From a virus: a stretch of DNA of 64,000 nucleotides. The DNA is taken from positions 1 through 64,000 of IMG/VR virus record IMGVR_UViG_3300023202_000336. One strand, given 5' to 3'. Positions 35,833 to 63,523 of this stretch are shown here, one piece after another; the stretch's first letter is position 1, and each line of letters begins with the position of its first letter. Under the pieces are notes generated by a model. It saw only the letters and a list, made by a program, of their open reading frames with translations. It was not told where the DNA came from and made no database searches. Position numbers and translations under genes: made by a program.

Positions 35833-38703
35833 ATGCCTTCCAATTTCGCTTTCAGCCCGACTCATAGCTCGCTCATCCCGACGATGAGTAACCAGCCCTT
35901 CGGTGCCGAGCAGCTGACGCCGAATTTCCGAAACTTCCCGACACCGTGGCTCGATTATTCGACGGTCGCGGTGCCCGATAACCACGAACTGGTGATGTGG
36001 TGGGCCCAGTACTTGTGGATCATGGATGGGAACTTCAGAACGGCGATGGAGCGCGTCGCGGCACATTTTGTCACGACCATCGACTTCCCTGACCTTGAGC
36101 CGGGGGAGGAGTCTGTTTGGAAGGACCTTTTCCTTCAGTTCCTCGATTACCGCGCTGAGCTTATGGCTGCGGCGATGGACTACCTGTGTTTCCGAGGCGA
36201 TACGCGGGTGGTGGCTCGCGACGGGATCTATGAGATCTGCGAGCTTGAGGGGAAGGAAGTAGACGTCTTGTCAGAAGGCGGTGTCTATAGGCCGGCCAAG
36301 TTCAAGCGGTTCGGGATCCAGGAGCTTATGGAGGTCGAGTTTAGTGACGGGCGCACCGTGCTCGCTACTCCCGAGCATCAGTGGATCGTTGAAAGTAACG
36401 GTGGATCTATTCGTGTCCCGACTACCCAGCTGGCCGGTCGGCGTATAGAGCGTACCGTAGCTGAGCGTCCCGAGCGCGGTAACGGTTATTCCGAAGGAGT
36501 CCGTCACGGGTTCGTTTTTGGAGATGGATCTACTTATAACAAGCATCGAGAGAATCAGTTCTCGGTAGCGAACTTCTACGGTGATAAGACGGAACTGCTC
36601 CCCTATTTCGAAGGGTTCGGAGGGGAGCCGCGTAAATACGAGTACAGTTACGGAGCTGCCGTTATTAAGATACACGGGCTTCCGGCTCATTATAAACAGC
36701 TCCCGGATCCCGAAGTGAGTGCTGAGTATTGGTACGGATTCGTAAGTGGATTTCTTGCGGCAGACGGGTCTGTCGATACGCATGGTTGTGTTATTCTCAC
36801 TCAGGAGGCGAAAGAGACGCTCGCATCGATAGTCGAACAGCTTCCGCGTATCGGAATGGTCGCAGGACCGATCCGTGGTTACACTCAGGAAAGGACTTTG
36901 CCTGAGTACGACGGAGAGCAGAGGTCTGGTGAGACCACGATGCATTACGTGACGCTTCTGAAGCGTTTCATGCAGCCGGAAGATTTGCTTCTTTCAGGGC
37001 ATCGAGCTAAGTTCGAGGACAAATGGAAAGCGACCAATTACGGTAAATATATTCACGTGAAGAGCGTGAAAGAGACCGGCATCGTCGAAGATGTATACTG
37101 CTGTGTCGAGCACGAGACACACTCTTTCGTTATCGAAAACGGGATACTTACCGGCAATTGCTATGGGAATCTGGTTACGACGCTTTACCTTCCGTTCCGC
37201 CGTTACATGCGGTGCAGGCGGTGCGCACTCGAGCAGCCTATCGAGCGACTCAGCTATAATCTCCAGTTTTCCGCATCACCGCCGCATCTGATCTGGCGCC
37301 GCCGTGCCGATTGTCCGCGTTGCGGCGATAGTGCTCCTTACGAAGTAGTCGATCGTCGTGATAGCGATCTCGGGAAGGTCCGCATTAATCGTTACGATCC
37401 TTCTGATATTGAGATCGCCTGGAACAGGCATAGTCATAAGAAGGATATTTACTGGAGGATTCCCGAGGAGGACCGTCGAGATATTCTCGGAAAAGCCCGT
37501 ATCCATATCGATACGACTCCGCTCGAGGTTCTCGAGGCGGTTGCTGTCAACGGGAGACTTCGTTTCGAAGATAACATGGTCTTCCATCAGGCCGAACCTA
37601 ATATCTCCGGGATCAAGACGAGAGGCTGGGGTATTCCCCGGTCTATCTCGAACTTCAGGACCGCATGGCTTCAGCAATTGATCAACAAGCTCGATCAGGC
37701 AGTTGCGATCGATTACACGCTCGGTATCCGGCTTATCAGCCCGGCTGAGACGTCCGGATCTACTGACCCGCTTCAGACGCAAGGGCTTGAAAACTTTGCC
37801 TCGAAGATGAGTTCGATCGTTCAGGAGCACCGGGCGAACCCGGCGTCGTACCATACGTCGCCGTACCCGGTAAACTATCAGTTCCTCGGTGGCGAAGGCA
37901 GCGACGTCATGCCGGCTGATAAGATCAAGTTCCGTCAGCAGGAGTACCTGAACCAGCTCGGCGTGCCGCTCGAGTATCATCAGATGAATCTGCAGTCGCA
38001 GGCAGCGCCGATGTCGCTTCGGATGTTTGAAGCGTTCTGGCAGGGTATTCCGAGCTTCTACAATCGCCTCCTCGAGTGGGTCACCACGACGCTCTCGCGC
38101 GTGTACAACCTCGAGGATACACGCGTTCAGATGCAGAAGACCACGATCGCTGATGATCTCGAGCGTAAGGCGGTACTGTTGCAGCTGATGTCCGCGAACC
38201 AGCTCAGCCCGGAGACGGCGCTGCGTCCGTACGGCATCGATGCGCACGAGGAAGTGAAGAAGGTCTTCTCGCACGAGGACTACGTGGCGAGATTGCAGCG
38301 TGAGGCGGAAGAGCGTCAGCTGAATCGTGAAGAGATGGGTGTCATGAAGGGCATGTCGGCGCACCCGACTCCGTCGCAGATGGCGATGCAGCAGCAGGGG
38401 GCTGCTGCCGGGGGGATGCAGCCGCCTCCTCCTGGCACCCCGATGGGCGGCGTTCCGGCCGGCGGCCTCCCGCAGATGGGCCCGACCCCGCAGAGTCTCG
38501 AGGCTATGGGCGAGCAGGCCGAAATGATCGCTCAGCAGCTGGTGGGTCTTGATGAGTATACTCGGAAGCAGGAGCTCAAGGCGCTGCGGGAGTCGAATAA
38601 GGATCTGCATGCGCTTGTGACGAAGAGCATGGAGGAGATTCGGAGTGCTGCCCGCTCGGAGGGTGGACACATGCTCCTTTCACAAGGGGCAGGGGGCGTG
38701 TAA
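35833..38703 (+). CDS. Portal protein interrupted by an intein
   Basis: 956 residues as translated, 632 after removal of the intein (residues 119-442). The extein shows an N-terminal part with WWAQYLWIMDGNFRTAMERV, a CxxC pair set (MRCRRC, DCPRCG) near 37210-37325, the portal core (IPRSISNFRTAWLQQLINKL, YLNQLGVPLEYHQMNLQSQA, EAFWQGIPSFYNRLLEWVTT) and a Gln/Gly/Pro-rich C-terminus. The pattern of helices, 'GVP' loop and stem matches large-phage portals, the dodecameric DNA gate at the capsid vertex. The protein must splice to fold properly because the intein splits the wing region at DYL/CYGN. Confidence 0.75.
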   Translation: MPSNFAFSPTHSSLIPTMSNQPFGAEQLTPNFRNFPTPWLDYSTVAVPDNHELVMWWAQYLWIMDGNFRTAMERVAAHFVTTIDFPDLEPGEESVWKDLFLQFLDYRAELMAAAMDYLCFRGDTRVVARDGIYEICELEGKEVDVLSEGGVYRPAKFKRFGIQELMEVEFSDGRTVLATPEHQWIVESNGGSIRVPTTQLAGRRIERTVAERPERGNGYSEGVRHGFVFGDGSTYNKHRENQFSVANFYGDKTELLPYFEGFGGEPRKYEYSYGAAVIKIHGLPAHYKQLPDPEVSAEYWYGFVSGFLAADGSVDTHGCVILTQEAKETLASIVEQLPRIGMVAGPIRGYTQERTLPEYDGEQRSGETTMHYVTLLKRFMQPEDLLLSGHRAKFEDKWKATNYGKYIHVKSVKETGIVEDVYCCVEHETHSFVIENGILTGNCYGNLVTTLYLPFRRYMRCRRCALEQPIERLSYNLQFSASPPHLIWRRRADCPRCGDSAPYEVVDRRDSDLGKVRINRYDPSDIEIAWNRHSHKKDIYWRIPEEDRRDILGKARIHIDTTPLEVLEAVAVNGRLRFEDNMVFHQAEPNISGIKTRGWGIPRSISNFRTAWLQQLINKLDQAVAIDYTLGIRLISPAETSGSTDPLQTQGLENFASKMSSIVQEHRANPASYHTSPYPVNYQFLGGEGSDVMPADKIKFRQQEYLNQLGVPLEYHQMNLQSQAAPMSLRMFEAFWQGIPSFYNRLLEWVTTTLSRVYNLEDTRVQMQKTTIADDLERKAVLLQLMSANQLSPETALRPYGIDAHEEVKKVFSHEDYVARLQREAEERQLNREEMGVMKGMSAHPTPSQMAMQQQGAAAGGMQPPPPGTPMGGVPAGGLPQMGPTPQSLEAMGEQAEMIAQQLVGLDEYTRKQELKALRESNKDLHALVTKSMEEIRSAARSEGGHMLLSQGAGGV
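36187..37158 (+). other. Portal intein (324 aa) with LAGLIDADG-type endonuclease
   Basis: It starts at Cys119 (CFRGDTRVVA, block A), has TPEHQWIV as block B, two LAGLIDADG-like segments (FVFGDGSTYN and FLAADGSVDT), block F (EDVYCCVEHETHSFVIENG) and ends ILTGN before Cys+1. The penultimate residue is Gly instead of the usual His. Removal yields the continuous extein DYL-CYGNLVTTLYLP. The two endonuclease motifs suggest it can still home. Confidence 0.9.
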
Positions 38704-45018: not shown

Positions 45019-48000
45019 ATGCCGTTTACGGCTTGGTCCCCTGATCACGCTCGCCCAGGACTGGGGCCGGCTCCATTCGATCCGCCGACTCCGGCCGCGA
45101 AGCCCGTGCAGCTGCGTCGATTCGATGACATCGAACAACAGCGAAAGGCTATCTACGAGTCCGCGCGGAGTGCGTTCCAGAATCTTCGTCCGATTCAGAA
45201 CGCGTCGTACCGAATCGAAGTAGCTGACGTCGATTACGACACCCCTGATTTCGAGCCTTCGATCTCCGACGAAAAGAAGGCGCTTCTGCAGAGCGGGTCG
45301 CTTCATCGCCCCCTTAAGGGCACGGTTCGTCTGGTTGATCAGAATACCGGAGACGTAGTTGGTGAGGAGCGGACGACGCTCGCACACGTGCCACACCTCA
45401 ACAGTCGTGGTATGGTGATCCGAAAAGGAGTTGTCTGGGTTCCGCGGAACCAGGCCCGCTTGAGACCCGGCGTGTATACGCGTCACAAGAAGAGTGGCGG
45501 AATAGAGGCGCAGTTCAATGTGAAGGGTGGTCGCGCCTTCCGTATCGAGCTCGAGCCAGAGTCCGGTCTTTTCAAGATGAATATCGGCCAGTCGACCACC
45601 CGTCTCTATCCGATTCTTCGTGCGATGGGTATCACTGATGACGCGATGCGAGAGGCGTGGGGTGACGAGCTGTTCAAAAAGAACTATCGACGTGAATCCG
45701 GGAGCGACGACAAAGACCTGAGAAAGGTCGTGAAGAAGCTCGGACCTTCGGGGGTGACTGTCGAGGATGATCAGCTCGTTGACGTATTAAAGGAGTCGGT
45801 ACAGAAGTCGAAGGTCGATCCGGACGTCATGGAAATCACGATGGGGGAGCGAGCTGAGAACGTCGCCCCTGAGCATCTCTTTCAGGTGACGAACAAGATT
45901 TTGAACGTGAGTCGCGGGACTGCTGACGGCGATAACCGCGATTCGCAGGCGTTCCAGTCGATTCATTCTGCCGAGGATTTCATACGGGAACGGCTCGAGA
46001 AAGATCAGGTAGGAGCGCTGCGTAAACTCCTCTGGAGGGCGACACGAGAGAAGAAGCTTCCGAAGGTCCAGTCGGGGCTGATGAATAAGAACATCTCTTC
46101 GATTTTCGAAGGCTCCGGTCTCGCGGTCGCTGCAGAGGATATCAACCCGTTCGAGATTCACGACCTACGGCAGGGGATCATTCGACTCGGTGAGGGCGGG
46201 ATCAGCTCAGAGAGGGCTGTGAGCCGCGAGGCACGCGGTGTGCAAGCGAGTTACGCAGGTCTGATCGACTCGGGGAGAGGGCCGGAGTCGGGAAGACTCG
46301 GGTTGGATCTGCGTGTGACCGATGCAGCGCAGAAGGGCGACGACAACCAGCTCTATACCGAGGTGAGAAATCTCAAGACCGGTGAGACTGAAACTGTGTC
46401 TGCGAGAACACTTTCTTCGAAGATCGTCACCTTCCCTGGCGAACTCTCGTCCGATACCAAGAGAATCCCGGCGATTAAAGGCGATAAGATCGTTTACGTC
46501 CCGAAAGACGAGGTCGATTACGAGATTGCGAGTCCGAATGACATGATGTCACGGGCGACCGCGATGATCCCGTTTCCAGAGTCGATCAAGGGCCAGAGGC
46601 TGCTCATGGGCGCGCGTATGACCTCCCAGGCTCTTCCGCTGGAAGAGGCTGAAGCGCCTTATGTGCAGACAGCGTCGAAGGACGGGACTAGCCTTCATAA
46701 ACAGATGGGCCCGGTCGTTGGTGCCCGGGTTTCTCCGGTCGGAGGGGTTGTAACGAAGATTTCTCCCGATTTCATTGAGCTCGCGGCCGATGACGGCAAG
46801 AAGCGTCGTATCGACCTTTACAACAACTATCCGACTGCTCGTAAGACGATGATACATAACGAGCCCACGGTGAAGAAGGGTCAGCGGATCAAGGAGGGTG
46901 ATCTCGTTGCGAAGTCAAATTTTACGAGCGACGACGGGACTGCGGCCGTAGGGCGTAATCTTCGTACCGCATTTGCGATCGCAGAAGGCAATACGATCGA
47001 AGACGCGTTCGTCATTTCGGAGTCGGCAGCGAAGAAGCTCACGTCGCAGCATCTCTATAAGCATGACGTCGATTTGAAGGATCTCGAATCGACGGATAAG
47101 AAGCGGTACGTTTCGATATACGCTGATAAGTGGGGTCCCGAGCAGCTCGATCGATTGGATGATGACGGGGTCATTAGAGAAGGAGCAACGGTAAACGCCG
47201 GAGACCCGGTTGTTCTCGGTTTTGCGAAGAAAAAGAAGCGAGGTGTCGGGGCGCTGATGCGTTCGCCAAGAGATGCTTTCGCTGATAAAACGCAGACGTG
47301 GAATCATCATTCGCCGGGCGTAGTGACGGACGTGGTGAAGGGGCGTAAAGGGATAAAGGTTACGCTCAAATCAAAGGAGGCGATGAAGCCGGGCGACAAA
47401 CTGTGCTATAGCCCTGACCACGAAATACTTACACAGCGCGGCTGGATACCCGTCTCAAAGACACTACACTCTGATCTGATAGCCTCGCTAAACCCGGATA
47501 CGGATGAAATTGAGTACGTTCGTCCGGTGGAAATACATTCTTTCGATCACGATGACGTAATGTATGAGGTCGAGTCTACACAGGTGTCGATGTGCGTTAC
47601 TCCCGACCACAAAGTATATGCTTCTAAAAAGAAGGATAAGAAGGATCTCGATTATCATCTTTTTGAGGCGCGAGAGTTGTTCGGAAGGACATATCGTCTC
47701 AAAAACTCTGGGAGGTGGGCAGGAGAGTCTCCAAGTCACATCGTGTTCCCTGAGTGTCAGGTTAAACACGGTGGAATAGGTAACTCATATCGCACTATTC
47801 CTGAAAAGGCAATATCAATACAGGCTTATTTCGTTCTGTTAGGCCTCTTTCTGTCTGAGGGGAATGTATTTAAACACGTGAAGAGCGGGAGCTACGGTAT
47901 AGACATAACTCAGTGTAAAGAAAGTAATATAATCAAAATAAAGCACGTGTTGGATAGCCACGGTATTAAGTATTCTCGTAATAAGACTAAGTTCCGGCTT

Positions 48001-50544
48001 TACGGGCGTCAGTTGCTTAATTATTTTGAGCAATTTGGAAAGTGCCACGAGAAATATATACCCAACTGGGTTTTTTCGTGTAGCAGTGAGGACCTTAAAA
48101 TACTCTTCGAATGGATGATGCTTGGAGATGGGCACTATAGTGCTACATGCGCTTCTTATGTGACTACGTCTAAAAATCTCGCCGACGACTTTCAGAGGCT
48201 TTGTCTTCATATCGGATACGCCGGAAAGGTAAAAGCTACTAATAGAGAGCCGTGTATTCTCAAGTTTCCGGGTAGAGAAGACGTCACTATTCCTAAAACA
48301 CGGTACGACGTAAGCGTGTATAGGGGTAAGCTGAATCCTACCATTAATCACAGCCATACGAGGCACCAGCGCGGGCAGTCTGAGAGATGGGTTAATTACA
48401 CGGGAAAGGTGCATTGTGTAACTCTTGAGAGGAATCATATACTTTATACGCGTAGGAACGGGAAGGCTCATTGGAGCGGCAATACCTCGCGGTACGGGGC
48501 CAAGGGTGTAATTTCAGAGATTCGACCTGATGAGCAAATGCCGACTGACGACGACAGTCGACCGGTCGAGGTGATTGCGAATAGTCTCGGAGTGATCTCT
48601 CGGACCAATCCTTCCATGCTTGCTGAAGCTATTCTCGGAAAGATCTCAGAAAAAACGGGCAAGCCGTACGTGATCAAGGGGTTCGGAAATTCCGGTGACG
48701 TTGTGGAGTATGCGCTTCGCGAAGGAGTTAAGCATGGGGTCGTAAGTGTCGATGACGAAGGCAATATAACCGACGTTGGCGTACTCACCGATCCGAGGGA
48801 TAACCGGAAGATCAAAAATATGTTCACCGGAATCCCGTATCTGATGAAGCTACACCACGTTGCAGAAGCGAAGATCAGCAGCCGTGATACCGGCGGTTAC
48901 ACCGCTGAAGGAATACCTGCCCGAGGCGGGAAAGAAGGCAGCAAGCGGATTGGGCTTCTCGACGCGCATAGCTTGCTCTCAGCCGGAGCTACCGAGTTTC
49001 TCAAAGATGCGAAGCTCATTCGTGGGCAGCGTAACGACGAGTACTGGCGAGCATTAAAGGCGGGTGATACCCCGTTGCAGCCAACGGTTTCGTTTGCGAA
49101 TGAGATGTTCAAGTCGCAGCTTCGAGCAGCTGGGGTCAATCTTCGTGAAAAAGGGACACGTACCGGTCTCGCGCCGCTCCTTGATCAGGACGTTGATAAG
49201 ATCGCTCAGCATGAGATTGAGCGTCCCGGCACTTTTGATTTCGAAACGATGCGCCCGATCAAAGGTGGTCTTTTCGATTTGACGGCGACTGGTGGAGCGG
49301 AAGGGACTCGGTTCTCGAAGATCACGCTTCCGAGAAAGATTCCACATCCACTTTTCGTCGAGCCGATCCAGCGGGTGCTTGGTCTGACCGGTAAGCAGTT
49401 CGAAAATGTTCTCTCCGGGAAGGAGGAGCTTCACGGCGAAACTGGCCCGGACGCGGTCGAGAAGGCGCTCAAGAGTCTTGATGTAGACCGAGAGATCGGC
49501 CTTGCGAAAGAGGAGATTCGCACCGGAAAGAAAACGCGTCGTGACAAGGCGGTGAAGAAGCTGAATTATCTTACCGGTATCAAGCAGATGGAGATCAATC
49601 CAGAAGATCTGATGATCAGCAAGATCCCGGTGATCCCTCCCCGTTTCCGCCCGATTTCGAAGGCGAAAAATATCGACATCGTCCACGACTTGAACTACCT
49701 CTATCACGACCTGTTAGAGGCGAAGAAGAACTATAACGATGCTCAGGAGGTGTTCGGAGAGGCTGACGACGAATATATGACGATGATGAATGCGGTGAAA
49801 TCCGTCGCGGGGTTGCGTGAACCGGTGAATCCGAAGTCAGTCGATCAGGGCGTGAAGGGCATTCTTCGCTACGCGATTGGAATCGGCGATAGTCCGAAGT
49901 CGGCAACCTTTCAGCGTAAGGTGATAGGAAGTGCGGTCGATACAGTCGGGCGCGGTGTTATTACGGCCGACTCGAACCTCGATATGGACGAGGTCGGTGT
50001 TCCTGAGGATATGGCGTGGAATATCTTCAAACCGTTTACGATGCGTCGACTCCGTCGCTACGGGTATTCTGCTCGTGACTCGCTCAAGGCGGTTAAGGAT
50101 CGCACCCCGGTTGCCAGGAAGGCGCTTGAGGAAGAAATGGCGGAGCGACCGGTCGTTTACAACCGCGCCCCGTCGTTGCACCGCTACAGCTACGTAGGCG
50201 CTTGGGGCAAGATCAGGGACGATGACGCGATTGGTATGCCCTACCATACTTTGAAGGGGCTGGGAGGTGACTACGACGGGGATACGGTGAACATCCATGT
50301 TCCCGTTTCGTCTGACTCGGTCGATGAGGTCAAAGAGAAGCTCATGCCGAGTAAGAACCTCTATTTCACAGGTACCTTCGAGACGCACCTCGAGCCGAAT
50401 CAGGATTATTTGGCCGGACTCTTCCTTGCGAGCATGCCGGATCCGAAGGAAGAGGTAAAAACGTTCGCAAACGAAGAAGAGGCTCGAAAGGCCTATGCGC
50501 GAGGAGAGATCAGCGCACGAACGCCGATCCGTATTCTTGCGTGA
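45019..50544 (+). CDS. RNA polymerase: complete beta fused to N-terminal beta-prime, with intein
   Basis: 1841 residues from ATG 45019 behind AGAGGA; 1481 after splicing. Beta part: VRLVDQNTGDVVGEE, VPHLNSRGMVIRKGVVWVPR, EGNTIEDAFVISES, catalytic lysines in GDKL (Lys794) and GAKG (Lys1162), LGVISRTNPSMLAEAILG, and the beta end YLMKLHHVAEAKISSRDTGG. Beta-prime part: KGGLFD, ITLPRKIPHPLF, ADSNLDMDEVGVPEDMAW, VVYNRAPSLHRY, catalytic loop GGDYDGD (residues 1749-1755), EPNQDYLAGLFLAS. The Cys of the N-terminal zinc site are missing between GLFD and ITLP. It ends ARTPIRILA, the point where the gene at 53813 resumes. It is a phage RNA polymerase core, possibly packaged. Confidence 0.93.
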   Translation: MPFTAWSPDHARPGLGPAPFDPPTPAAKPVQLRRFDDIEQQRKAIYESARSAFQNLRPIQNASYRIEVADVDYDTPDFEPSISDEKKALLQSGSLHRPLKGTVRLVDQNTGDVVGEERTTLAHVPHLNSRGMVIRKGVVWVPRNQARLRPGVYTRHKKSGGIEAQFNVKGGRAFRIELEPESGLFKMNIGQSTTRLYPILRAMGITDDAMREAWGDELFKKNYRRESGSDDKDLRKVVKKLGPSGVTVEDDQLVDVLKESVQKSKVDPDVMEITMGERAENVAPEHLFQVTNKILNVSRGTADGDNRDSQAFQSIHSAEDFIRERLEKDQVGALRKLLWRATREKKLPKVQSGLMNKNISSIFEGSGLAVAAEDINPFEIHDLRQGIIRLGEGGISSERAVSREARGVQASYAGLIDSGRGPESGRLGLDLRVTDAAQKGDDNQLYTEVRNLKTGETETVSARTLSSKIVTFPGELSSDTKRIPAIKGDKIVYVPKDEVDYEIASPNDMMSRATAMIPFPESIKGQRLLMGARMTSQALPLEEAEAPYVQTASKDGTSLHKQMGPVVGARVSPVGGVVTKISPDFIELAADDGKKRRIDLYNNYPTARKTMIHNEPTVKKGQRIKEGDLVAKSNFTSDDGTAAVGRNLRTAFAIAEGNTIEDAFVISESAAKKLTSQHLYKHDVDLKDLESTDKKRYVSIYADKWGPEQLDRLDDDGVIREGATVNAGDPVVLGFAKKKKRGVGALMRSPRDAFADKTQTWNHHSPGVVTDVVKGRKGIKVTLKSKEAMKPGDKLCYSPDHEILTQRGWIPVSKTLHSDLIASLNPDTDEIEYVRPVEIHSFDHDDVMYEVESTQVSMCVTPDHKVYASKKKDKKDLDYHLFEARELFGRTYRLKNSGRWAGESPSHIVFPECQVKHGGIGNSYRTIPEKAISIQAYFVLLGLFLSEGNVFKHVKSGSYGIDITQCKESNIIKIKHVLDSHGIKYSRNKTKFRLYGRQLLNYFEQFGKCHEKYIPNWVFSCSSEDLKILFEWMMLGDGHYSATCASYVTTSKNLADDFQRLCLHIGYAGKVKATNREPCILKFPGREDVTIPKTRYDVSVYRGKLNPTINHSHTRHQRGQSERWVNYTGKVHCVTLERNHILYTRRNGKAHWSGNTSRYGAKGVISEIRPDEQMPTDDDSRPVEVIANSLGVISRTNPSMLAEAILGKISEKTGKPYVIKGFGNSGDVVEYALREGVKHGVVSVDDEGNITDVGVLTDPRDNRKIKNMFTGIPYLMKLHHVAEAKISSRDTGGYTAEGIPARGGKEGSKRIGLLDAHSLLSAGATEFLKDAKLIRGQRNDEYWRALKAGDTPLQPTVSFANEMFKSQLRAAGVNLREKGTRTGLAPLLDQDVDKIAQHEIERPGTFDFETMRPIKGGLFDLTATGGAEGTRFSKITLPRKIPHPLFVEPIQRVLGLTGKQFENVLSGKEELHGETGPDAVEKALKSLDVDREIGLAKEEIRTGKKTRRDKAVKKLNYLTGIKQMEINPEDLMISKIPVIPPRFRPISKAKNIDIVHDLNYLYHDLLEAKKNYNDAQEVFGEADDEYMTMMNAVKSVAGLREPVNPKSVDQGVKGILRYAIGIGDSPKSATFQRKVIGSAVDTVGRGVITADSNLDMDEVGVPEDMAWNIFKPFTMRRLRRYGYSARDSLKAVKDRTPVARKALEEEMAERPVVYNRAPSLHRYSYVGAWGKIRDDDAIGMPYHTLKGLGGDYDGDTVNIHVPVSSDSVDEVKEKLMPSKNLYFTGTFETHLEPNQDYLAGLFLASMPDPKEEVKTFANEEEARKAYARGEISARTPIRILA
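47404..48483 (+). other. RNA polymerase intein (360 aa) with LAGLIDADG-type endonuclease
   Basis: It begins CYSPDHEILTQRGW, has TPDHKVYAS as block B, endonuclease motifs LGLFLSEGN and WMMLGDGHYS, and ends KVHCVTLERNHILYTRRNG then KAHWSGN, followed by Thr+1. Splicing restores GDKL-TSRYGAKG, the loop with the two catalytic beta lysines. The insert is visibly richer in A and T (for example 47930-47960) than the flanking gene, which fits recent arrival. Confidence 0.93.
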
Positions 50545-50587
50545 TTGTCCATCTGGTACTGTCGCTACTCGAGAATAGGATACGTAC

Positions 50588-51613
50588 ATGACACCGTTAC
50601 AGCTGAAACTCTACAAGCGGTCCTTCGTTCCGATGGGGCCGTCCGCGGAGAAAACCGGCCAGCAGGCGTCCGGACCCGGCGGAATGCCGGTCGGTCCCGG
50701 CGCTGGCGCTCCTCCGCCTCCGGGAATGATGCCTCCTGGTGGAGGGATGCCTCTGCCTCCTGGCGGCGCCGGCGGGACGCCTCCGCCCCCGGGTATAGGA
50801 CCGATGGATCCGTCAGCTCCGATGGATCCCGCTGCGGGTGGTGCCCCTCCGGCCGACCCTATGGCTGCACTTCCTCCGATGCCGGGGGAGGAAGGGCTCG
50901 ATGTGCCACCGGAGACGCTTCCGGAGGACCTCGGAGCCGCCCCTGAGGGCGGGGGTGACGGTCTTTCTACGGCAGATGCAGAGGCGGCTGCGAAGATCCA
51001 GCAGCAGACGCTCGATATCGTCGAGCGGACGCTGGACATGGTCGGTAAGACCAAGAAGGATAAGCCGCAAGAGGGTGCCCAGGACCTGCAGCAGGACGGC
51101 CAGGAGCAGGCCGATCAACAGCAGGAAGAACCACCTCCTGAGGCTCAGCCGGGACCTATCACCGGTGAGCCCGGCTTTAGCCCGGGCATGATTAATGGTC
51201 CACTTAAGCTGGGCTCGGCATCGATTGTTACGAAGGCCCTCAAGACGGCGGCTGCTCGTCGTGCCGCTACTAAGACGGCTGCGGTGCTCACGCAGCTGTT
51301 GGTTAAGAACGCTCAGTCCTCAGCCGATATCTGGCGTAAGAAGCGTGGAATGAAGCCCGGCCAGCGCGTGACGGCTCCGAGTAAAGCGTATCGTACTGGG
51401 GTTGCTGGAGGGGCAACGGCGATGACTTCTACGCAGACTCCTACGACTACGCAGACTCCTACGACTACGCAGACTCCTACGACTACGCAGTCCTCCGCTG
51501 ATATTTGGCGTCAGAACCGTGGAATGAAGCCCGGCCAGCGCGTGACGGCCCCGACGGAGGGGGCAGGGGCGGTGACTTCTCGGCAGACTCCTACTGGTTA
51601 TTACTCTCTATGA
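50588..51613 (+). CDS. Pro/Gly-rich virion-cluster protein with internal duplication (341 aa)
   Basis: Residues 25-110 are proline/glycine-rich (GAGAPPPPGMMPPGGGMPLP). A helical middle follows (KIQQQTLDIVERTLDMVGK). Two copies of SSADIWR..RGMKPGQRVTAP (from about 51314 and 51488) flank three copies of an 18-bp repeat coding TQTPTT. KTAAARRAATKTAAVLTQLL lies before the first copy. Disordered linker-type protein; it interrupts the two halves of beta-prime. Function unknown. Confidence 0.55.
   Translation: MTPLQLKLYKRSFVPMGPSAEKTGQQASGPGGMPVGPGAGAPPPPGMMPPGGGMPLPPGGAGGTPPPPGIGPMDPSAPMDPAAGGAPPADPMAALPPMPGEEGLDVPPETLPEDLGAAPEGGGDGLSTADAEAAAKIQQQTLDIVERTLDMVGKTKKDKPQEGAQDLQQDGQEQADQQQEEPPPEAQPGPITGEPGFSPGMINGPLKLGSASIVTKALKTAAARRAATKTAAVLTQLLVKNAQSSADIWRKKRGMKPGQRVTAPSKAYRTGVAGGATAMTSTQTPTTTQTPTTTQTPTTTQSSADIWRQNRGMKPGQRVTAPTEGAGAVTSRQTPTGYYSL
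51431..51490 (+). repeat. 18-bp tandem repeat (3.3 copies) coding TQTPTT
   Basis: The unit acgcagactcctacgact occurs at 51431, 51449 and 51467, followed by a partial copy. It keeps the frame of the Pro-rich gene and joins its duplicated SSADIWR blocks. Confidence 0.9.
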
Positions 51614-53271
51614 GGCTTGGGAAGTTCGCCTTTGGTAAGTCCGCTCAGTACCAGGGCGCACCGGTAGGTGGCGCTGGGATGATGTGGAACCCGATGGGGA
51701 TGTTGCAGCAAGCTCATCAGCAGCGTTTGCAGCACGGGCAGCGCTCCTCGGATTTCGCATATGGACCTCCCGCAGCGCCTGGATTCGTGACAGGGCAGCA
51801 GGCGGCGGTAGGAGGCGCCCAGGCGGTAGCTGGTTCAATCGGCGCGCTGATTATGGGCGTCGCGATGCCTTACATTCAGTCTGTCGCAGGCGAGGCCGGC
51901 GTTGACCTTCATCAGCCGTATCAGATCGCTTACGGGGCGAATCCGGCCGATGCTCGAGAGATCGCACGAGTCACGGGTCAGGTCATGCAGCGTCAGTTCG
52001 AGACGACCGGTGCGAGTGTTCAGGGCCTCATTTCAACGTTGGACGAGCAGGTTGAGAAGAATTTTGGTATCGAGCTTCCTCTTGAGGAGATCCGCCATCT
52101 TCCCGCCGGAGCTGTTGGAAACTTCGTTCAGCAGCTTTCTATGTTCGTTCCCGAGATTCAGACGGTTCTTTCGACGATGGATCCTCGTTATATTTCTGAC
52201 CTCTCACCGATGGTGAAGGCGACTTACGTCGCAAATAATGGTGAGTTCGATCCAAACGTATTTAGAAACGTCGTTCAGGATTTTCAGCAGTCCTACAATA
52301 AAGGGCAGTTCAGAGGAGTCCCTGCCCAGATCGCGATGCATGCGGTACAGTATGCGAAAGAGCGAGGCGGTCCTGGCGCGGGAATGCGGGAAGCGGTAAA
52401 CGCTGCGCAGTCTGCGAACGCATTCGTTCAGGCGGGACTTGCGCCGAGCTTCGGAGAGGCGCTCACGCTTGTAAACGAGGTTGATCCAACTGGTGGCCTC
52501 ATAAATCCGACGAGAGCGATTCGTTACGCATCCCAGCTGAACGAGATGGCGAAACGCGGATTCGTCGATCGGAAGCATATCTTCGAAGCCGCCCGTGTCG
52601 CTCGGCAGCAGGGTCTCCCAATTAGGGCGGCGATGACGGCAGTCGCTGGCGGCGGCCGTGCACGAACGATGGTGCGTGGACCTCGTGGAAGTGAGCTCGC
52701 GGAGACCGCGGCGAGTACGATGGCCCGCATGGGCGAGTCTGACACGATGCGGCTACTCGCGGCAGCGCACCAGCAGAGCCCGAGGGCACGGGGCCTCATT
52801 GAGCGGGCGCTCGAGACGGGCGATAACCGCCTCCTGGACCGCGTTATACAGAAGGCCCAGCAAAGCCCTCGTCTGATGGCCTCGAAGACTCATGTCGACC
52901 CTTCATACCTGATCAACCGGATGGATCCGAATATGATGCGCGGTCAGGTCATGTCAGATGTGCGGCGATTCGCTGCGCAGACTGGCAGCCGCGACCTTCA
53001 GCGGCTCGTGAACCGCCCCGAGGAGCTTCAGAGACGTCTTCGCACGCACGATTTCACTGGTCTTGATCCGCAGGCGGTTCGGTACTTGAGTGAAGGCGGC
53101 CCGACTGGCGGCCGTCTCGGTGCAGCTGCGATGACGTTCGCAGACCCGTTCGGCACCGAGTCTGACCTCTCGAGGTACCATAAGCCTCCGAAGCGGCTTG
53201 GTCTCCCGTTCCCGGAGATGAAGCCGAGCGGCCCTCCCGTGACACAGCGTTTCGATCCGGTCGAACGGTGA
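51610..53271 (+). CDS. Virion-cluster protein (553 aa), all-helical
   Basis: ATG 51610 overlaps the previous stop as ATGA; longer in-frame extensions are shadows of the Pro-rich gene. It starts MRLGKFAFGKSAQYQGAPVG, then a Gln/Met-rich part, a short hydrophobic helix (AGSIGALIMGVAMPYIQSVA) and many short amphipathic helices (FVQAGLAPSFGEALTLVNEV, IFEAARVARQQGLPIRAAMT). Possibly an ejected inner-virion protein. No known family. Confidence 0.5.
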   Translation: MRLGKFAFGKSAQYQGAPVGGAGMMWNPMGMLQQAHQQRLQHGQRSSDFAYGPPAAPGFVTGQQAAVGGAQAVAGSIGALIMGVAMPYIQSVAGEAGVDLHQPYQIAYGANPADAREIARVTGQVMQRQFETTGASVQGLISTLDEQVEKNFGIELPLEEIRHLPAGAVGNFVQQLSMFVPEIQTVLSTMDPRYISDLSPMVKATYVANNGEFDPNVFRNVVQDFQQSYNKGQFRGVPAQIAMHAVQYAKERGGPGAGMREAVNAAQSANAFVQAGLAPSFGEALTLVNEVDPTGGLINPTRAIRYASQLNEMAKRGFVDRKHIFEAARVARQQGLPIRAAMTAVAGGGRARTMVRGPRGSELAETAASTMARMGESDTMRLLAAAHQQSPRARGLIERALETGDNRLLDRVIQKAQQSPRLMASKTHVDPSYLINRMDPNMMRGQVMSDVRRFAAQTGSRDLQRLVNRPEELQRRLRTHDFTGLDPQAVRYLSEGGPTGGRLGAAAMTFADPFGTESDLSRYHKPPKRLGLPFPEMKPSGPPVTQRFDPVER

Positions 53272-53283
53272 ATGCGCATTCAC
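53268..53283. promoter_or_regulatory. 16-bp perfect palindrome GTGAATGCGCATTCAC
   Basis: It spans the stop of the 553-aa gene and a potential ATG at 53272. It differs by one symmetric change from the centre of the 24-bp palindromes at 2692 and 2868 (GTGAACGCGCGTTCAC), so it may be bound by the same protein. Confidence 0.5.
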
Positions 53284-53298
53284 AATGAGGAACGGTTG

Positions 53299-53502
53299 AT
53301 GATCGTCCGTATCGTCCATGAGAACGGGAAAATCTATGATATGCCGGTCTCCCAGGTCTCGGTACATACTGAGAACGGCGACCCGTGTATGCTCGCTTAC
53401 GAGCACGCAAATCTGATAGTTTGTTCCCATGTGAACGAAAAGGACTTTGAACGGCAGTGTGCGCAGCTGAAAATCGACCGCATCGAGGTGCCCCATGCCT
53501 GA
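53299..53502 (+). CDS. Hypothetical protein (67 aa)
   Basis: ATG 53299 follows GAGGAA at six bases and is preferred over ATG 53272, which lies inside the palindrome. Beta-rich MIVRIVHENGKIYDMPVSQV and LIVCSHVNEKDFERQCAQ. Overlaps the next start by eight bases. Function unknown. Confidence 0.45.
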   Translation: MIVRIVHENGKIYDMPVSQVSVHTENGDPCMLAYEHANLIVCSHVNEKDFERQCAQLKIDRIEVPHA

Positions 53503-53809
53503 CTGTGCGGTAGAGCAAGAAGCAATCGAGCGTCTCAGGTCATTAACCTGTGATGCGATGATGCATTATTTCGAAACTTTCGATGAGTATCCGACGCATC
53601 TGTACGTGAATACTGGGTCTGATGCTGAGAGGATCGTGAGATCAGCGCTTGAGAGGGTCGGTACCACCGAATTTCTTTTTGCGTTGACGGTTGTTCTCCG
53701 GAAGTTCTCTTTCGGGAAATCTGATCTTTTCGTCGGTGAGGACCGGTACGCCTCGGATATGCGGCGCTGCGCGGTGTTGAGCTATCGAAATTACAGTTCA
53801 GGCTCGTGA
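53495..53809 (+). CDS. Hypothetical protein (104 aa)
   Basis: Helical small protein with two N-terminal Cys (MPDCAVEQEAIERLRSLTCD) and C-terminal FALTVVLRKFSFGKSDLFVG. It lies immediately before the second polymerase gene and could be co-regulated with it. No family recognised. Confidence 0.45.
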   Translation: MPDCAVEQEAIERLRSLTCDAMMHYFETFDEYPTHLYVNTGSDAERIVRSALERVGTTEFLFALTVVLRKFSFGKSDLFVGEDRYASDMRRCAVLSYRNYSSGS

Positions 53810-53812
53810 GAC

Positions 53813-55687
53813 ATGGCTGATATCACGACTGTTGGTACGATTCTTATTAATGACGCGCTGCCTGAGGATATGCGTAAGAAGGAGCATCGTCTCGATAAAA
53901 AAGGTGTTCACGAGCTGTTTATGGAGCTCGCGAAGAAACATCCGGAGAAATACAGCGCGGTTCTGCAAGAACTTTCGAATGTAGGAAAAACGGCTGCATG
54001 GACCGAGGGGCTGAGCGTGAGTCTCGCGGCGCTTCGTAAATCGAAAGCGAAAGAAGCGATATTGCAGCCGGTCAGAGAGAGAATCAGAGCGATCGTCGAT
54101 GACGATGATCTCAATGATGAAGAGCGAAACGAAGCTATTATTAACGAGCTTATGAAGGTTTCGAACGATCTGACGGAGGCCATTTACGAAGAGTCGAAAG
54201 CGGAGGGATCGCCTTTCGCAGTTCAGATCGAAAGCGGTGCGCGTGGAAAGAAGTCGAATCTCGCAAGTCTCCGAGGGGCCGATTTACTCGCGACTGACCA
54301 AAACGATAACTTCATTCCTGTTCCGATATGGAACTCATATGCCGAAGGGCTCACTCCGGCGCAATATTTTGCTGCGAGTTACGGGCAGCGGAAAGGTATG
54401 CTGAATACGAAGCTCGCGACGGCAGATGCTGGATTCCTCTCCAAACAGCTCGTGAACGCTGCACATCGGCAGGTTGTTACGAGGGACGAGCCTGAGGCGA
54501 CGCGCCTTCCAGTGGGCCTTCCGACGAGGACGGACGATAAAGATAACATTGGAGCCGTTCTCGCCCAGGACGTCGGTAAGTATACAGCTGGAACCGTTCT
54601 CGACGATGAGACGCTCGAAGACCTCCAGGACGAAGGTATCGAGGACATTCTCGTGCATTCGATCATGACCGAGCCGTCTGCGGACGGGGGCGTGAGTGCA
54701 CAAGCGGCAGGACATCGTACCCGTGAAGGACTTCATCAGCTGGGGGACAATATCGGTATCCCTGCCGCGCAAGCGGTTGGCGAACGATTGAGCCAGGGAT
54801 CTTTATCGGCGAAGCACTCCGCTGGAGTTTCAGATCGTGTCAGTAAATCTGGGTTCGAGTACATCAATCGCCTCATCCAGGCTCCCGAGAGCTTTCCCGA
54901 GGCAGGACCGCTCGCGGAAGAAGATGGCTTGGTCGAAGACGTCCGTGAAGCTCCGCAGGGTGGTAACTATATCCGCGTGAAGAAGCGCGAGTATTACATC
55001 CCTCCGGGCTTGAACGTGACGGTCAAGGTCGGCGACGAGGTAGAGCAGGGTGATGACCTCAGCGATGGGACGCCGCACCCAGGAGATCTGGTTCGCCTTC
55101 GCGGGATCGGCGAAGCGAGGCGGGTTTACATGCAGAACCTCAAGGAGGCGCTCGATGCCTCGGGAGTCGACGCACATCGACGCAACGTTGAGGCTGTTAC
55201 GGCCGGGCTGATAAATTGGGCACGTGTGACCGACCCTGACGGCATCGATCAGCACATTTACGATGACGTAGTTCCTTTCAACAACTTGGCTTACAGCTAT
55301 AAGCCTCGTGCTGACGCTGAAGAACTCGAACCGAAGAAGCTCGTAGGACGTTACCTGGAGGAGCCGGTCCTCCATTATACGCCAGGAACACGGGTGACCC
55401 GGAAGATCGCGAAGGATCTCGAGAAGTGGAAGATCAAGAAGGCGTTCGGTCACCAGGATCCGCCCGAATTCGAGCCCCACATGGTCCGCGGTCTTCACAG
55501 TATTTTCCACGATCCGGACTGGAGGACCCGTCTTTCAGGCTTTTATACTGCTTCGGCCTTCCAGAAATCACTTCACCGAGGGCGCGAATCTGATGTCCAG
55601 AGCACGAGTTACGTCCCGTCTCTGACGACACCGCAGGTGCTCGGCCGGCAGCTGAAGACGCTTGGCAAGTACGGTCAGCAGAGATAG
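53813..55687 (+). CDS. RNA polymerase beta-prime, C-terminal half
   Basis: 624 residues. It begins exactly at the beta-prime motif TTVGxxLxxxxLP (ITTVGTILINDALP). IESGARGKKSNLASLRG (139-155) and EGLTPAQYFAASYGQRKGML (178-197) are the active-site rim and bridge helix; LATADAGFLSKQLVNAA follows. GDNIGIPAAQAVGERLSQ (311-328) leads to the trigger loop GSLSAKHSAG with the conserved catalytic His335; Met and Arg of the bacterial loop are Leu and Ser. The Cys residues of the second zinc site are replaced (TEPSADGGVSAQAAG). The C-terminal 280 residues are diverged. It must assemble with the product of 45019 to be active. Confidence 0.92.
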   Translation: MADITTVGTILINDALPEDMRKKEHRLDKKGVHELFMELAKKHPEKYSAVLQELSNVGKTAAWTEGLSVSLAALRKSKAKEAILQPVRERIRAIVDDDDLNDEERNEAIINELMKVSNDLTEAIYEESKAEGSPFAVQIESGARGKKSNLASLRGADLLATDQNDNFIPVPIWNSYAEGLTPAQYFAASYGQRKGMLNTKLATADAGFLSKQLVNAAHRQVVTRDEPEATRLPVGLPTRTDDKDNIGAVLAQDVGKYTAGTVLDDETLEDLQDEGIEDILVHSIMTEPSADGGVSAQAAGHRTREGLHQLGDNIGIPAAQAVGERLSQGSLSAKHSAGVSDRVSKSGFEYINRLIQAPESFPEAGPLAEEDGLVEDVREAPQGGNYIRVKKREYYIPPGLNVTVKVGDEVEQGDDLSDGTPHPGDLVRLRGIGEARRVYMQNLKEALDASGVDAHRRNVEAVTAGLINWARVTDPDGIDQHIYDDVVPFNNLAYSYKPRADAEELEPKKLVGRYLEEPVLHYTPGTRVTRKIAKDLEKWKIKKAFGHQDPPEFEPHMVRGLHSIFHDPDWRTRLSGFYTASAFQKSLHRGRESDVQSTSYVPSLTTPQVLGRQLKTLGKYGQQR

Positions 55688-60635: not shown

Positions 60636-61619
60636 ATGCCTTTCGCAGAGGTCGCTGCCGACGTTCTGACTGATCCTCAGAAGCAGATGAAAGTTGCCGC
60701 GGAGGTGGGTGACGAGGAGGCGCAGTCTGCTGAGGAGCGTGCGAAGAGTCGTCGTCTCAAGGCGATTCTTTATACGTTGGCGGGGATCGGTACCGTAGGG
60801 CTTGGTTCTTACTTTCTTCTCAAACACCCCGATAAGGTCGCTGAAGGGGTGAGAAAGGTTTTTGGTGGAGAGGAAGAGCCAGAGCAGACCGCTGCAGAAC
60901 GTTTGAAAGGAGCGGTTACCTCTCCGAGTATAGCGGGCGGTCTTGCTTACCTCGGTGCCGGAACTCGAACTGGCGCTTCGTATCTTCCGAGGACGCTTCA
61001 GAAGTTTCCGTTCTTTACGGGTGACCGTGCGCTTTCGCTCGAAAATCTTCGAAAGCATATTGCCGCGGTCTCAACACCTGAAGGTCAGACAGCAGCCGCG
61101 CAGGCGAAGACCCCTGATCAGAGGCTCGGGGCTCTTATGACGGATCTTCCAGAGCTGGAGCAGCGCAGAAAGTTGCATAAAGAGCTGGGAAGGGCTCGAG
61201 GCAGAGAGGGGTCGATATTGAATCTCATCGCTGCTGATCCGAAACTTAAGCGCATAGATGAGATCTTGCAACTTCCTCGTGCGCAACAGCAGGCGCTGAT
61301 AAAGAAATTGAAGGCCCCGGCAAGGACCATTCCCGGTCTTTCCGGCCTCCAAGACGTACGGTTCATGAAGAACCTTGAGCGCGGCTTAGGAGAACTCGCA
61401 GCACAGGAAGGAAGGAAAACTCCTGGAGCAGGAGAGCGCGCGAGAGCTGTTAGGCGCTTTCTTGGAGCGGATCCTGAGACGCTTCACGGTGCGCTGAGGT
61501 CGTACCGGAAGGCACGTGCTCCGAGAAGTTTCTGGGGAGGCGTCGGGCGAGCTGCTGTTGTTCCGACGGCAACTATGGTCCCCGGTGCGCTTGAGACTTA
61601 TGAGGCATGGACTGACTAA
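60636..61619 (+). CDS. Virion membrane-helix protein (327 aa)
   Basis: A transmembrane helix at residues about 42-62 (ILYTLAGIGTVGLGSYFLLK) after a charged N-terminus. The rest is basic and helical (LEQRRKLHKELGRARGREGS, DEILQLPRAQQQALIKKLKA). The stop overlaps the protease start as TAATG, so the two are probably translationally coupled. Confidence 0.5.
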   Translation: MPFAEVAADVLTDPQKQMKVAAEVGDEEAQSAEERAKSRRLKAILYTLAGIGTVGLGSYFLLKHPDKVAEGVRKVFGGEEEPEQTAAERLKGAVTSPSIAGGLAYLGAGTRTGASYLPRTLQKFPFFTGDRALSLENLRKHIAAVSTPEGQTAAAQAKTPDQRLGALMTDLPELEQRRKLHKELGRARGREGSILNLIAADPKLKRIDEILQLPRAQQQALIKKLKAPARTIPGLSGLQDVRFMKNLERGLGELAAQEGRKTPGAGERARAVRRFLGADPETLHGALRSYRKARAPRSFWGGVGRAAVVPTATMVPGALETYEAWTD

Positions 61620-63523
61620 TGATTACGAAACTGATCCTTCCGCAGTCGTTTAGTTTCGATGGTCCAGCCGCGTCGTTGGTGCCACTTCATCGCGTCGGAG
61701 GGGCTGATTCGCAATGGTTGCGGAAGCATGCGAGTCATGGAGTCTTTCATGACCTCCTTCGAGACCTGAAGCCGATTCCTGGTAAGTCCGTTATTCATGT
61801 ACTCGCGGTCGGTGACGAGGAGCTGTGGGGCCCGAACCGAAACGGCGACGGGTTCAGTCGTGAAGATAATGTGACCGCGCATCGGACGTTCAAAGACATC
61901 GGTCACGTCTTCAGGCACCACCAGAATGATGATCCGTTCAAGGCCGTCGGTGATATCATCGCTACGGCGCATAACGAGAATATGTCTCGGATCGAGTTAC
62001 TTCTCGGGCTCGATAATACGAAGTGTCGCCGTGAGATCGAAAAGGTCGATAACGACGAAGATCTCCCTGTGAGCATGGGTTGCTTTACGGCCGGTCACTT
62101 TCTGACGCTCGAAGACGGGTCGGTTATTAGGTTAGAGGACGCAGTCGAAGGTCAGCAGGTATTGACGCATTTAGGTAATCGGCTACCTATTACACACGTT
62201 TTTAATCAGGACCCGTATACCGGCACGTTGTATACTCTGAAGGCCCGAACGGTTGAGGACGTTGAGGCTACGGCCGAGCACCCGTTTTTTGTAGTGCGTC
62301 AGGAGCATATTGTTCACACGGGCCGTAAAACACGCCGCGTGGATCCGTCTAAACTTAATCAACTTGATGTTACGTTAGACGCTGACTGGGTTGCTGCGAA
62401 GGATCTTCGGGTAGGCGACTACTTGGTTACTCCCGTGAACCTTGAAGAAGAGCTTCCGGATTACATTCCCCGTACCGACACCCCTGTTCTCGCAAGGCAC
62501 ACGACCAAGGCCTGTCGAGACTTGGAGACTACTCACCGCGGCGGAAGTAGGTTGCGTGTAGATGATTTCATTCTTACACCTATCCGTGATATCTTGTCGC
62601 GAGACGTTGTAGACGAGCCCGTTTACAATATTGAGGTACAGAGTGATAACTCGTACGTGATTAATGGCATCGCGGTTCATAATTCTCTTCAGGATTTCGA
62701 TGTTTGTTCTCATTGTGGTCATAAGGCGCCAACGGCTTCGGATCATTGCGAACATATCAAGAAGATGCTCGGACAGGTCTTGGAGGACGGTACCAAGATC
62801 TACATGAAGAACCCGAAGCCGAAGTACTTCGATCTCAGCCTCGTTTTCAAGCCGGCTGATCGGATCGCGTACACGCTTCGGAAGGTTGCTGCCGCTGGTG
62901 GCGAAGTCATCGGGGGCCACGAACTGGCTGACATGGTTGGTCTCGTCGATTGGACGCATCCGAAGATGGCTGCGAAGCGGACGCTGGCGGCGATGTATAA
63001 AGAGATCCCGATGACGATCCGTCAGGTGACACGTCCGAAGGACGTCCATCCGAATGTCGCTGCGGAGCTCAAAAAGCAGGCGAATCTCCACGGAATCGAC
63101 CAGTTGCTCGGATTCCTGCATTCGAACGGGTGGCTCCTGAGCCCACGTGACTTCGCCGAGGTGATCGGGCACCCCGAGCCTGAGAAGTGCGAAATGGCGG
63201 TTGCGAAGCACGATGGTATGGACGATTTCCTCGACGATCACAGCGAAGTCAAATCGTTGGAAGTCCCTGTCATACAAGACCCTATGACTTTGAGCGGGCG
63301 AGCTCTCGAGGAGCTTGAGGGCGCCTGTTCGATGCATCCTGACAAGGTCCAGAAGCGGGTGATTTCGATTACCGTGACCGGACCTTCAGAGAAGACTGCT
63401 CAGATCGAGGATACGGCTGAAGCGAAGGGGTTGGCAGCGCTGTACAACCACTATAAAGTAGCATTCGCTATGCAGTTCCAGTCTCGGAACGATATCCTTC
63501 GCAACGTCGCAGCTACGTTCTGA
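61619..63523 (+). CDS. Probable prohead maturation protease, interrupted by an intein
   Basis: 634 residues, 433 after removal of the intein (residues 155-355). The extein has VIHVLAVGDEELWGPNRNGD GFS, then GHVFRHHQNDDPFKAVGDII (candidate catalytic His followed by the P-x-G loop) and LPVSMG (candidate catalytic Ser, as in the SxG motif of HK97-type proteases). It continues with a Cys/His cluster DVCSHCGHKAPTASDHCEH and PKYFDLSLVFKPADRIAYTL. This layout is that of large-phage capsid maturation proteases. Gene order protease then acidic scaffold-like protein supports it. The protease would cut scaffold and head proteins. Confidence 0.6.
   Translation: MITKLILPQSFSFDGPAASLVPLHRVGGADSQWLRKHASHGVFHDLLRDLKPIPGKSVIHVLAVGDEELWGPNRNGDGFSREDNVTAHRTFKDIGHVFRHHQNDDPFKAVGDIIATAHNENMSRIELLLGLDNTKCRREIEKVDNDEDLPVSMGCFTAGHFLTLEDGSVIRLEDAVEGQQVLTHLGNRLPITHVFNQDPYTGTLYTLKARTVEDVEATAEHPFFVVRQEHIVHTGRKTRRVDPSKLNQLDVTLDADWVAAKDLRVGDYLVTPVNLEEELPDYIPRTDTPVLARHTTKACRDLETTHRGGSRLRVDDFILTPIRDILSRDVVDEPVYNIEVQSDNSYVINGIAVHNSLQDFDVCSHCGHKAPTASDHCEHIKKMLGQVLEDGTKIYMKNPKPKYFDLSLVFKPADRIAYTLRKVAAAGGEVIGGHELADMVGLVDWTHPKMAAKRTLAAMYKEIPMTIRQVTRPKDVHPNVAAELKKQANLHGIDQLLGFLHSNGWLLSPRDFAEVIGHPEPEKCEMAVAKHDGMDDFLDDHSEVKSLEVPVIQDPMTLSGRALEELEGACSMHPDKVQKRVISITVTGPSEKTAQIEDTAEAKGLAALYNHYKVAFAMQFQSRNDILRNVAATF
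62081..62683 (+). other. Protease intein (201 aa), no homing-endonuclease motif
   Basis: It starts CFTAGHFLTLEDGSVI (block A), has TAEHPFFVV (block B), block F (VYNIEVQSDNSYVINGIAV) and the canonical HN end, followed by Ser+1. At 201 residues it is a mini-intein with a short linker where an endonuclease would sit. The extein joins VSMG to SLQDFDVC. It is likely fixed and unable to home on its own. Confidence 0.88.

What the first reader, a model, noticed from the sequence alone, without database searches (positions are those of the whole stretch)
45019..55687. RNA polymerase with beta fused to half of beta-prime, and beta-prime split between two motifs
Seen: one polypeptide carries the landmarks of all of beta and then of beta-prime up to just after the catalytic DYDGD loop, ending RTPIRILA. 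A second gene 3.3 kb downstream begins TTVGTILINDALP. In E. coli beta-prime as I know it, ARVKVRIT is followed within some 25 residues by TTVGR, so the cut falls between motifs that are nearly adjacent, with little or no loss. Known: phiKZ-like and AR9-like phages split beta and beta-prime into separate genes. A beta/beta-prime fusion followed by a mid-beta-prime split is a different arrangement that I do not recall.
Basis: partly seen in the sequence, partly recalled or inferred. Interest (0 to 1): 0.92.

Follow-up and report, generated by a model that had tools for sequence, protein, structure and literature searches.

The report
Phage RNA polymerase, fused then re-split
This phage carries a bacterial-type RNA polymerase whose two big subunits, beta and beta-prime, have been joined into one chain and then cut again in the middle of beta-prime; the same layout runs through a whole family of phages, and in one cultured member (Salmonella phage Arash) both pieces are found in the virus particle.

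Summary
Gene 45019-50544 encodes all of RNA polymerase beta followed directly by the N-terminal half of beta-prime, through the catalytic loop (GGDYDGD). Gene 53813-55687, 3.27 kb downstream, encodes the rest of beta-prime. Against the rpoC model the first part ends at position 533 of 1147 and the second starts at 549, so almost nothing is lost. The arrangement is not an oddity of one contig: cultured Salmonella phage Arash (gp206 + gp216), Vibrio phage D69 and at least ten distinct IMG/VR contigs share it. A sister clade of more than 20 phage contigs carries one uninterrupted ~2,060-aa beta-beta' chain. The tree therefore reads: fusion first, then a cut after the beta-prime double-psi barrel, then further cuts in sub-lineages. 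The contig holds no second beta or beta', no alpha and no omega, but has a sigma-70 relative. Published Arash proteomics found both RNAP pieces and the homologous sigma in purified virions, so the best reading is a sigma-dependent, alpha-less virion RNA polymerase. It meets no described phage RNAP class as defined; I found no paper describing the fusion or its re-splitting.

The parts
45019..50544 (+). fused gene: RNAP beta + N-terminal half of beta-prime (1841 aa with intein, 1481 aa after splicing)
   Evidence: homologs in Arash, Vibrio D69 and IMG/VR contigs
45019..47403 (+). beta, N-terminal part up to GDKL (residues 1-795)
   Evidence: alignment A2, HMM map
47404..48483 (+). intein (360 aa; CYSPDHEIL...HWSGN|T; LAGLIDADG endonuclease core), inserted at GDKL|TSRYGAKG of beta
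   Evidence: PF14528 LAGLIDADG_3; absent from Arash and D69; allelic intein in L098, 38% identity, E 5e-78
48484..49155 (+). beta, C-terminal part (residues 1156-1379, ends ...NLREKG)
49156..50541 (+). beta-prime N-half joined with almost no linker; zinc finger 1 (zipper) missing
   Evidence: junction alignment; PF04997/PF00623; rpoC model positions to 533
50263..50283 (+). catalytic loop GGDYDGD (three Mg-binding Asp retained)
50545..53812 (+). 3268-nt spacer with other genes (50588-51613, 51505-53271, 53272-53502, 53495-53809); spacer length varies from 3 to 8539 nt among relatives
   Evidence: no Rfam intron
53813..55687 (+). C-terminal half of beta-prime (624 aa)
54356..54463 (+). bridge helix (residues 182-217 of the C-half, modelled as one long helix)
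54782..54835 (+). trigger loop GERLSQGSLSAKHSAGVS with the conserved His; zinc finger 2 lost just before it
35833..38703 (+). portal protein (Arash gp204 homolog, carries its own intein); places the RNAP genes in the virion-structure module

Best explanation
This is a complete two-chain RNA polymerase core of bacterial type. Chain 1 (after intein removal) carries beta, the catalytic barrel and the front half of beta-prime in one polypeptide; chain 2 carries the bridge helix, trigger loop and the rest of beta-prime. The covalent beta-beta' link probably replaces the alpha dimer as the assembly platform, since no alpha or omega gene is found. Promoters are probably recognised through a phage sigma-70-like protein (G000 88124-88906). 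The enzyme is probably packed into the virion and injected to start early transcription, as its Arash homologs are virion proteins. Evolutionarily, beta and beta' fused once in an ancestor (single-chain form still present in a sister clade), then the chain was cut once after the beta' double-psi barrel, then again in sub-lineages. Shown: gene structure, homology, catalytic motifs, absence of other large subunits in the contig, conservation and tree. Shown for Arash only (by others): both parts and sigma in virions. Inferred: assembly into one enzyme, activity, replacement of alpha by the fusion, injection, intein splicing.
For: Profile matches to rpoB and rpoC with contiguous coverage and to solved bacterial beta (E 1e-106) and beta' (E 1e-62, 1e-74). 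Catalytic Asp triad and trigger-loop His kept in nearly all members read. No second beta/beta', no alpha or omega. Same two-gene layout in Arash, D69 and at least ten distinct IMG/VR contigs. More than 20 single-chain relatives. Tree: fused clade 95, post-barrel-split clade 100 UFBoot; 0.994 and 0.97 in FastTree. Arash virion proteome: gp206 3516 spectra, the most of any protein, gp216 1210, sigma gp10 467 (PMC10585845), which is 2.3, 2.0 and 2.0 per residue, compatible with equal amounts. Sigma relative in this contig. Fold comparison: fused piece best matches cyanobacterial gamma (E 8.5e-31), C-half best matches Thermus beta' (E 8.4e-27).
Against: I found no biochemistry for any member. The two chains could not be modelled together; single-fragment models have modest confidence (pLDDT 70 and 73, pTM 0.45 and 0.57) and global TM-scores below 0.5. 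The contig may be incomplete, so a missing gene is not proof of absence. Virion presence is by homology only, and the Arash authors note the enzymes could be carried over from abundant infection-stage protein. The intein has Gly, not His, before its last Asn. Sigma-70 region 2 was not detected by Pfam.
Confidence: 0.77

Rival explanations
1. It is a real RNA polymerase but acts after infection (middle/late genes), not as a virion enzyme; its presence in Arash particles is carry-over.
For: Arash authors raise carry-over; their particle proteome also lists nucleotide-metabolism enzymes; no early-gene promoter data.
Against: gp206 has the most spectra of all virion proteins and the sigma is there too; the genes sit beside portal and capsid genes.
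Confidence: 0.17
2. The halves form a hybrid enzyme with host subunits (host alpha/omega, or exchange with host beta or beta').
For: No phage alpha or omega; the beta C-terminal regions are recognisably bacterial.
Against: All catalytic parts are phage-encoded; zinc finger 1 and, in this phage, zinc finger 2 are lost; phiKZ/AR9-type phage RNAPs work without alpha (PMC7598289).
Confidence: 0.1
3. The two ORFs are one protein joined by a split intein, trans-splicing intron or sequencing error, so the split is not real.
For: Inteins and homing endonucleases do invade these genes.
Against: No intein half at either junction end; no Rfam intron in 40-60 kb; the same ends recur in many phages with spacers from 3 nt to 8.5 kb.
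Confidence: 0.02
4. A decaying gene, broken up by mobile elements, no longer functional.
For: Intein insertion; D181 gene interrupted by a homing endonuclease; Asn-Ala before the Asp triad replaced by Gly-Gly.
Against: Long intact frames, triad and trigger-loop His retained, conservation across dozens of phages, abundant protein in Arash.
Confidence: 0.03

Closest known systems
Salmonella phage Arash gp206 + gp216 (OQ632216; PMC10585845)
   Same: identical two-gene layout, 30% and 28% identity, sigma relative, portal next door
   Different: no intein; keeps zinc finger 2; published only as 'beta' and 'beta-prime' without noting the fusion
phiKZ/AR9-type jumbo phage vRNAP and nvRNAP
   Same: phage-encoded, alpha/omega-less, beta' split after the catalytic barrel (PMC7598289)
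   Different: there beta is split too and no beta-beta' link exists; no sigma-70 homolog is reported; sequence similarity to the profiles is marginal and no such phage was listed among the protein hits shown
mReC phages (Weinheimer & Aylward 2020, PMC7481178)
   Same: bacterial-like, recognisable by beta/beta' profiles, phage-borne
   Different: mReC were defined by a beta and a beta' match of at least 800 aa with NADxDGD; this phage has GGDYDGD and a 624-aa C-half. The single-chain sister group would fit most of these criteria, but the paper's main text does not mention fusion in mReC
Helicobacter/Wolbachia rpoB-rpoC fusion
   Same: beta followed by beta' in one chain; NF007172 and NF011417 match
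   Different: full-length beta' in one chain, cellular enzyme with alpha and zinc fingers (own knowledge); not re-split
cyanobacterial/plastid rpoC1 (gamma) / rpoC2 split
   Same: beta' cut in the same inter-domain stretch; gamma is the best fold match
   Different: the phage chain stops ~70 positions before the end of gamma and its C-half starts ~20 residues before rpoC2, so the cut is one motif further upstream; beta is separate there
crAss-like phi14:2 gp66 and P23-45 single-chain RNAPs
   Same: two barrels in one phage chain, virion enzymes (P23-45 also has a non-virion one)
   Different: extremely divergent; no COG0085/0086 similarity found for crAss-like RNAP (PMC7481178); here all bacterial landmarks remain

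Membership tests
bacterial-type multisubunit RNA polymerase (core homology) | beta and beta' domains with DxDGD catalytic triad, bridge helix, trigger loop | tested here: met
bacterial RNA polymerase (subunit set) | alpha dimer and omega | tested here: not met
   PF01000 and PF01192 absent from the contig; contig may be incomplete
mReC RNAP | COG0086-type beta' of at least 800 aa with NADxDGD in one gene | tested here: not met
   GGDYDGD; beta' divided over two genes; criteria
mReC RNAP | MCP PF07068 and TerL PF03237 | tested here: not met
   MCP homolog has no Pfam match; TerL gives only a weak PF05876 match
phiKZ/AR9-type jumbo phage RNAP | beta and beta' each split into separate genes, no link between them | tested here: not met
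   beta whole and fused to beta' N-half
phiKZ/AR9-type jumbo phage RNAP | beta' split after the catalytic double-psi barrel | tested here: met
   rpoC model 533 / 549; exact identity with the phiKZ cut not resolved
cyanobacterial rpoC1/rpoC2 architecture | gamma ends after the TTVGR motif, rpoC2 starts downstream of it | tested here: not met
   TTVG motif lies at residues 5-8 of the C-half; no cyanobacterium was in the tree
Helicobacter/Wolbachia-type fusion | complete beta and beta' in one chain | tested here: not met
   met only by the sister single-chain phages
virion RNA polymerase | protein present in mature particles and injected | not testable with these tools
   shown by others for Arash particles only; injection untested
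Arash-like fused-then-split phage RNAP clade (this work) | beta + beta' N-half fused, beta' C-half separate, clade membership | tested here: met

The most novel reading that the evidence does not exclude
A widespread phage lineage uses a bacterial-grade RNA polymerase core reduced to one chain (about 2,060 aa) or to a fused-and-recut pair, with no alpha or omega, carried in the virion with its own sigma; the living members show the order fusion, single split, further splits, and make RNAP assembly without an alpha platform directly testable in a cultured phage.
Probability: 0.6. Interest if true: 0.82.

Novelty: new variant of a known kind. Interest (0 to 1): 0.74.

Why it matters
Cellular multisubunit RNA polymerases use beta- and beta'-class subunits assembled on alpha. 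This lineage keeps nearly all bacterial landmarks, unlike the extremely divergent phiKZ, crAss-like or P23-45 enzymes, yet appears to dispense with alpha and omega through a covalent link, and it preserves intermediate states of fusion and splitting on one tree. A cultured phage (Arash on laboratory Salmonella ATCC 14028) makes structure, promoter mapping and a minimal two-protein (or single-protein) bacterial-type polymerase accessible to experiment.

Tried and rejected
Split intein or trans-splicing between the genes: no intein halves at the ends, no Rfam intron. Second beta/beta' elsewhere: none. Several 'phage' hits (L007, L008, L009, L010: wastewater, gut and Acinetobacter records) turned out to carry ordinary separate rpoB and rpoC genes that look bacterial, not relatives; most Mycobacterium and Prevotella hits of the fused protein align only to its intein. 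The single-protein IMG/VR scan with the C-half found only its own near copy; alignment queries were needed. phiKZ proteins were compared to locate its beta' cut exactly: too divergent for a residue-level answer. The genome-contig scan was filled by bacterial rpoB and served only as outgroups. Supplementary lists of the mReC paper could not be opened, so overlap of mReC with the single-chain group is unresolved. Literature searches for a prior description of the fusion found none, in open-licence papers only.
Full report
OBSERVATION. The window is the first 64 kb of a 180,134-bp IMG/VR phage contig. Pfam and NCBIfam recognise beta, then beta' N-half, in the first protein and beta' C-half in the second. 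On the contiguous rpoC model TIGR02386 the first protein ends at position 533 of 1147 and the second starts at 549, so the cut costs almost nothing: the fused chain ends ...ARTPIRILA, aligned with HARVKVRV of a canonical beta', and the C-half starts MADITTVGTILINDALP, aligned with TTPGRCLLWEVVP. Matches at E 1e-60 to 1e-106 against solved bacterial subunits exclude chance.

Residues 796-1155 are an intein: it begins CYSPDHEILTQRGW, ends HWSGN before Thr, holds a LAGLIDADG core (PF14528), interrupts the invariant GDK-(A/T)-G-R-H-G-N-K-G motif of beta, and is absent from Arash and Vibrio D69. L098 has an allelic intein at the same site (38% identity). The mature fused chain would be 1,481 aa.

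ANATOMY OF THE JUNCTION. Aligned with a canonical beta C-terminus and beta' N-terminus, the phage chains pass from ...RAAGVNLREKG to DVDKIAQHEIERPGTFDFETMRPIKGGLFD with about ten residues between. The beta' zinc finger 1 is missing in every fused phage chain examined; zinc finger 2 is kept in Arash, the Vibrio phages and the single-chain relatives but lost in the window phage. The Mg-binding Asp triad and the trigger-loop His are kept in nearly all members read. In the split clade the residue before that His is Lys (...KH), while the single-chain phages and most bacteria have Phe (...FH). Two rows (L014, L098) read oddly at the triad, probably through alignment next to inserted sequence.

SAME LAYOUT ELSEWHERE. 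Cultured Salmonella phage Arash: gp206 (1525 aa) and gp216 (606 aa), 4.8 kb apart, portal gene just upstream. Vibrio D69: same. Vibrio D181/D148: the fused gene is further interrupted at residue ~515 beside a homing endonuclease gene. IMG/VR: the two-gene layout in L014, L016, L017, L019, L020, L022, L023, L026, L027, L044, L089, L098, and with an extra cut in beta in L092; a three-gene layout (beta + first ~120 aa of the beta' segment | rest of beta' N-half | beta' C-half) in L018, L030, L032, L035, L036, L047, L049, with L029, L039 and L050 lacking the C-half on the fetched stretch; beta itself cut near residue 470 in L028, L046. Spacers between the beta' halves run from 3 to 8,539 nt, so the halves are independent genes; no intron family matches.

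SINGLE-CHAIN SISTERS. L024/L067 is one ORF of 2,082 codons with beta, beta' N-half and beta' C-half, and a scan with it found more than 20 further contigs with one ~2,020-2,150-aa ORF or one longer ORF with intein-like insertions. FastTree on 73 taxa and IQ-TREE on 33 taxa put all fused forms in one clade (0.994; 95), the post-barrel-split forms in one clade (0.97; 100), the single-chain forms in a sister clade (0.92; 95) and the three-gene forms in one clade (0.99; 94); bacteria fall outside. Because beta' is uncut at that point in bacteria and in the unfused phage outgroups that could be read (L102, L106), the simplest order is one fusion, then one split, then further splits. Caveats: no cyanobacteria, archaea or phiKZ-like sequences are in the tree; long branches are present (L011).

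SUBUNITS AND FACTORS. The contig has no second beta or beta', no alpha and no omega; its length is close to those of the Arash and D69 genomes (181 and 187 kb), but completeness is not established. It has a sigma-70 relative at G000 88124-88906, similar to Arash gp10 (27%, E 2e-17; PF04539; phrog_351), although region 2 did not score. Portal, capsid, terminase and several structural genes also match Arash.

FUNCTION. In the Arash virion proteome gp206 has the most spectra of any protein (3516), gp216 1210, sigma gp10 467 (PMC10585845). Divided by length (1525, 606, 234 aa) this is 2.3, 2.0 and 2.0 per residue, compatible with equal amounts, though several other virion proteins have similar values. 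I therefore infer a virion holoenzyme of fused beta-beta'N, beta'C and sigma, probably injected for early transcription. AlphaFold models of the fused piece (pLDDT 70) and of the C-half (pLDDT 73, bridge helix 182-217) match cyanobacterial gamma (E 8.5e-31) and Thermus beta' (E 8.4e-27); global TM-scores are below 0.5, as may be expected for isolated halves, so this supports local folds only.

RELATION TO KNOWN ENZYMES. A beta' cut after the barrel is shared by phiKZ-type phages and cyanobacteria (PMC7598289). Here the cut lies one motif upstream of the cyanobacterial one: the TTVG motif stays with the C-half, and the phage N-part stops about 70 positions before the end of gamma. Beta-beta' fusions are known in Helicobacter and Wolbachia (own knowledge; NF007172, NF011417 match) but not re-split. 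The mReC definition is not met by this phage; the single-chain sisters would fit its sequence criteria as far as I can test, so part of that group may have been seen before without its fusion being described. I found no paper describing beta fused to half of beta'.

VERDICT. Real, conserved and unusual: a new architectural variant of phage-encoded bacterial-type RNA polymerase.

Noticed in passing
window 35833-38703 and 61619-63523: Two more intein-bearing virion genes (portal, and an Arash gp222 homolog; PF14890): the phage carries at least three inteins, all in structural or RNAP genes.
   Followed up: partly
L098 7749-16502: Fused RNAP gene of 2,918 codons with four insertions, one of them close to the catalytic DxDGD motif and one at the same site as the window intein.
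   Followed up: partly
L079 and L086, position 10230: Single-chain RNAP ORF interrupted by one in-frame TGA inside beta in two contigs: recoding, a split, or an error.
   Followed up: no
L089 16369-20127, L092 15156-19025: beta' C-half protein of 1,250-1,290 aa, with about 600 extra C-terminal residues of unknown nature.
   Followed up: no
window 29746-34221: 1,491-aa protein combining LigD-type phosphoesterase, DNA/RNA ligase and NUDIX domains.
   Followed up: no
G000 137267-140353 (outside window): Family A DNA polymerase carrying a uracil-DNA glycosylase domain.
   Followed up: no
trigger loop, C-half residues 332-336 and relatives: The split clade has Lys before the catalytic trigger-loop His, where single-chain phages and most bacteria have Phe.
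   Followed up: partly
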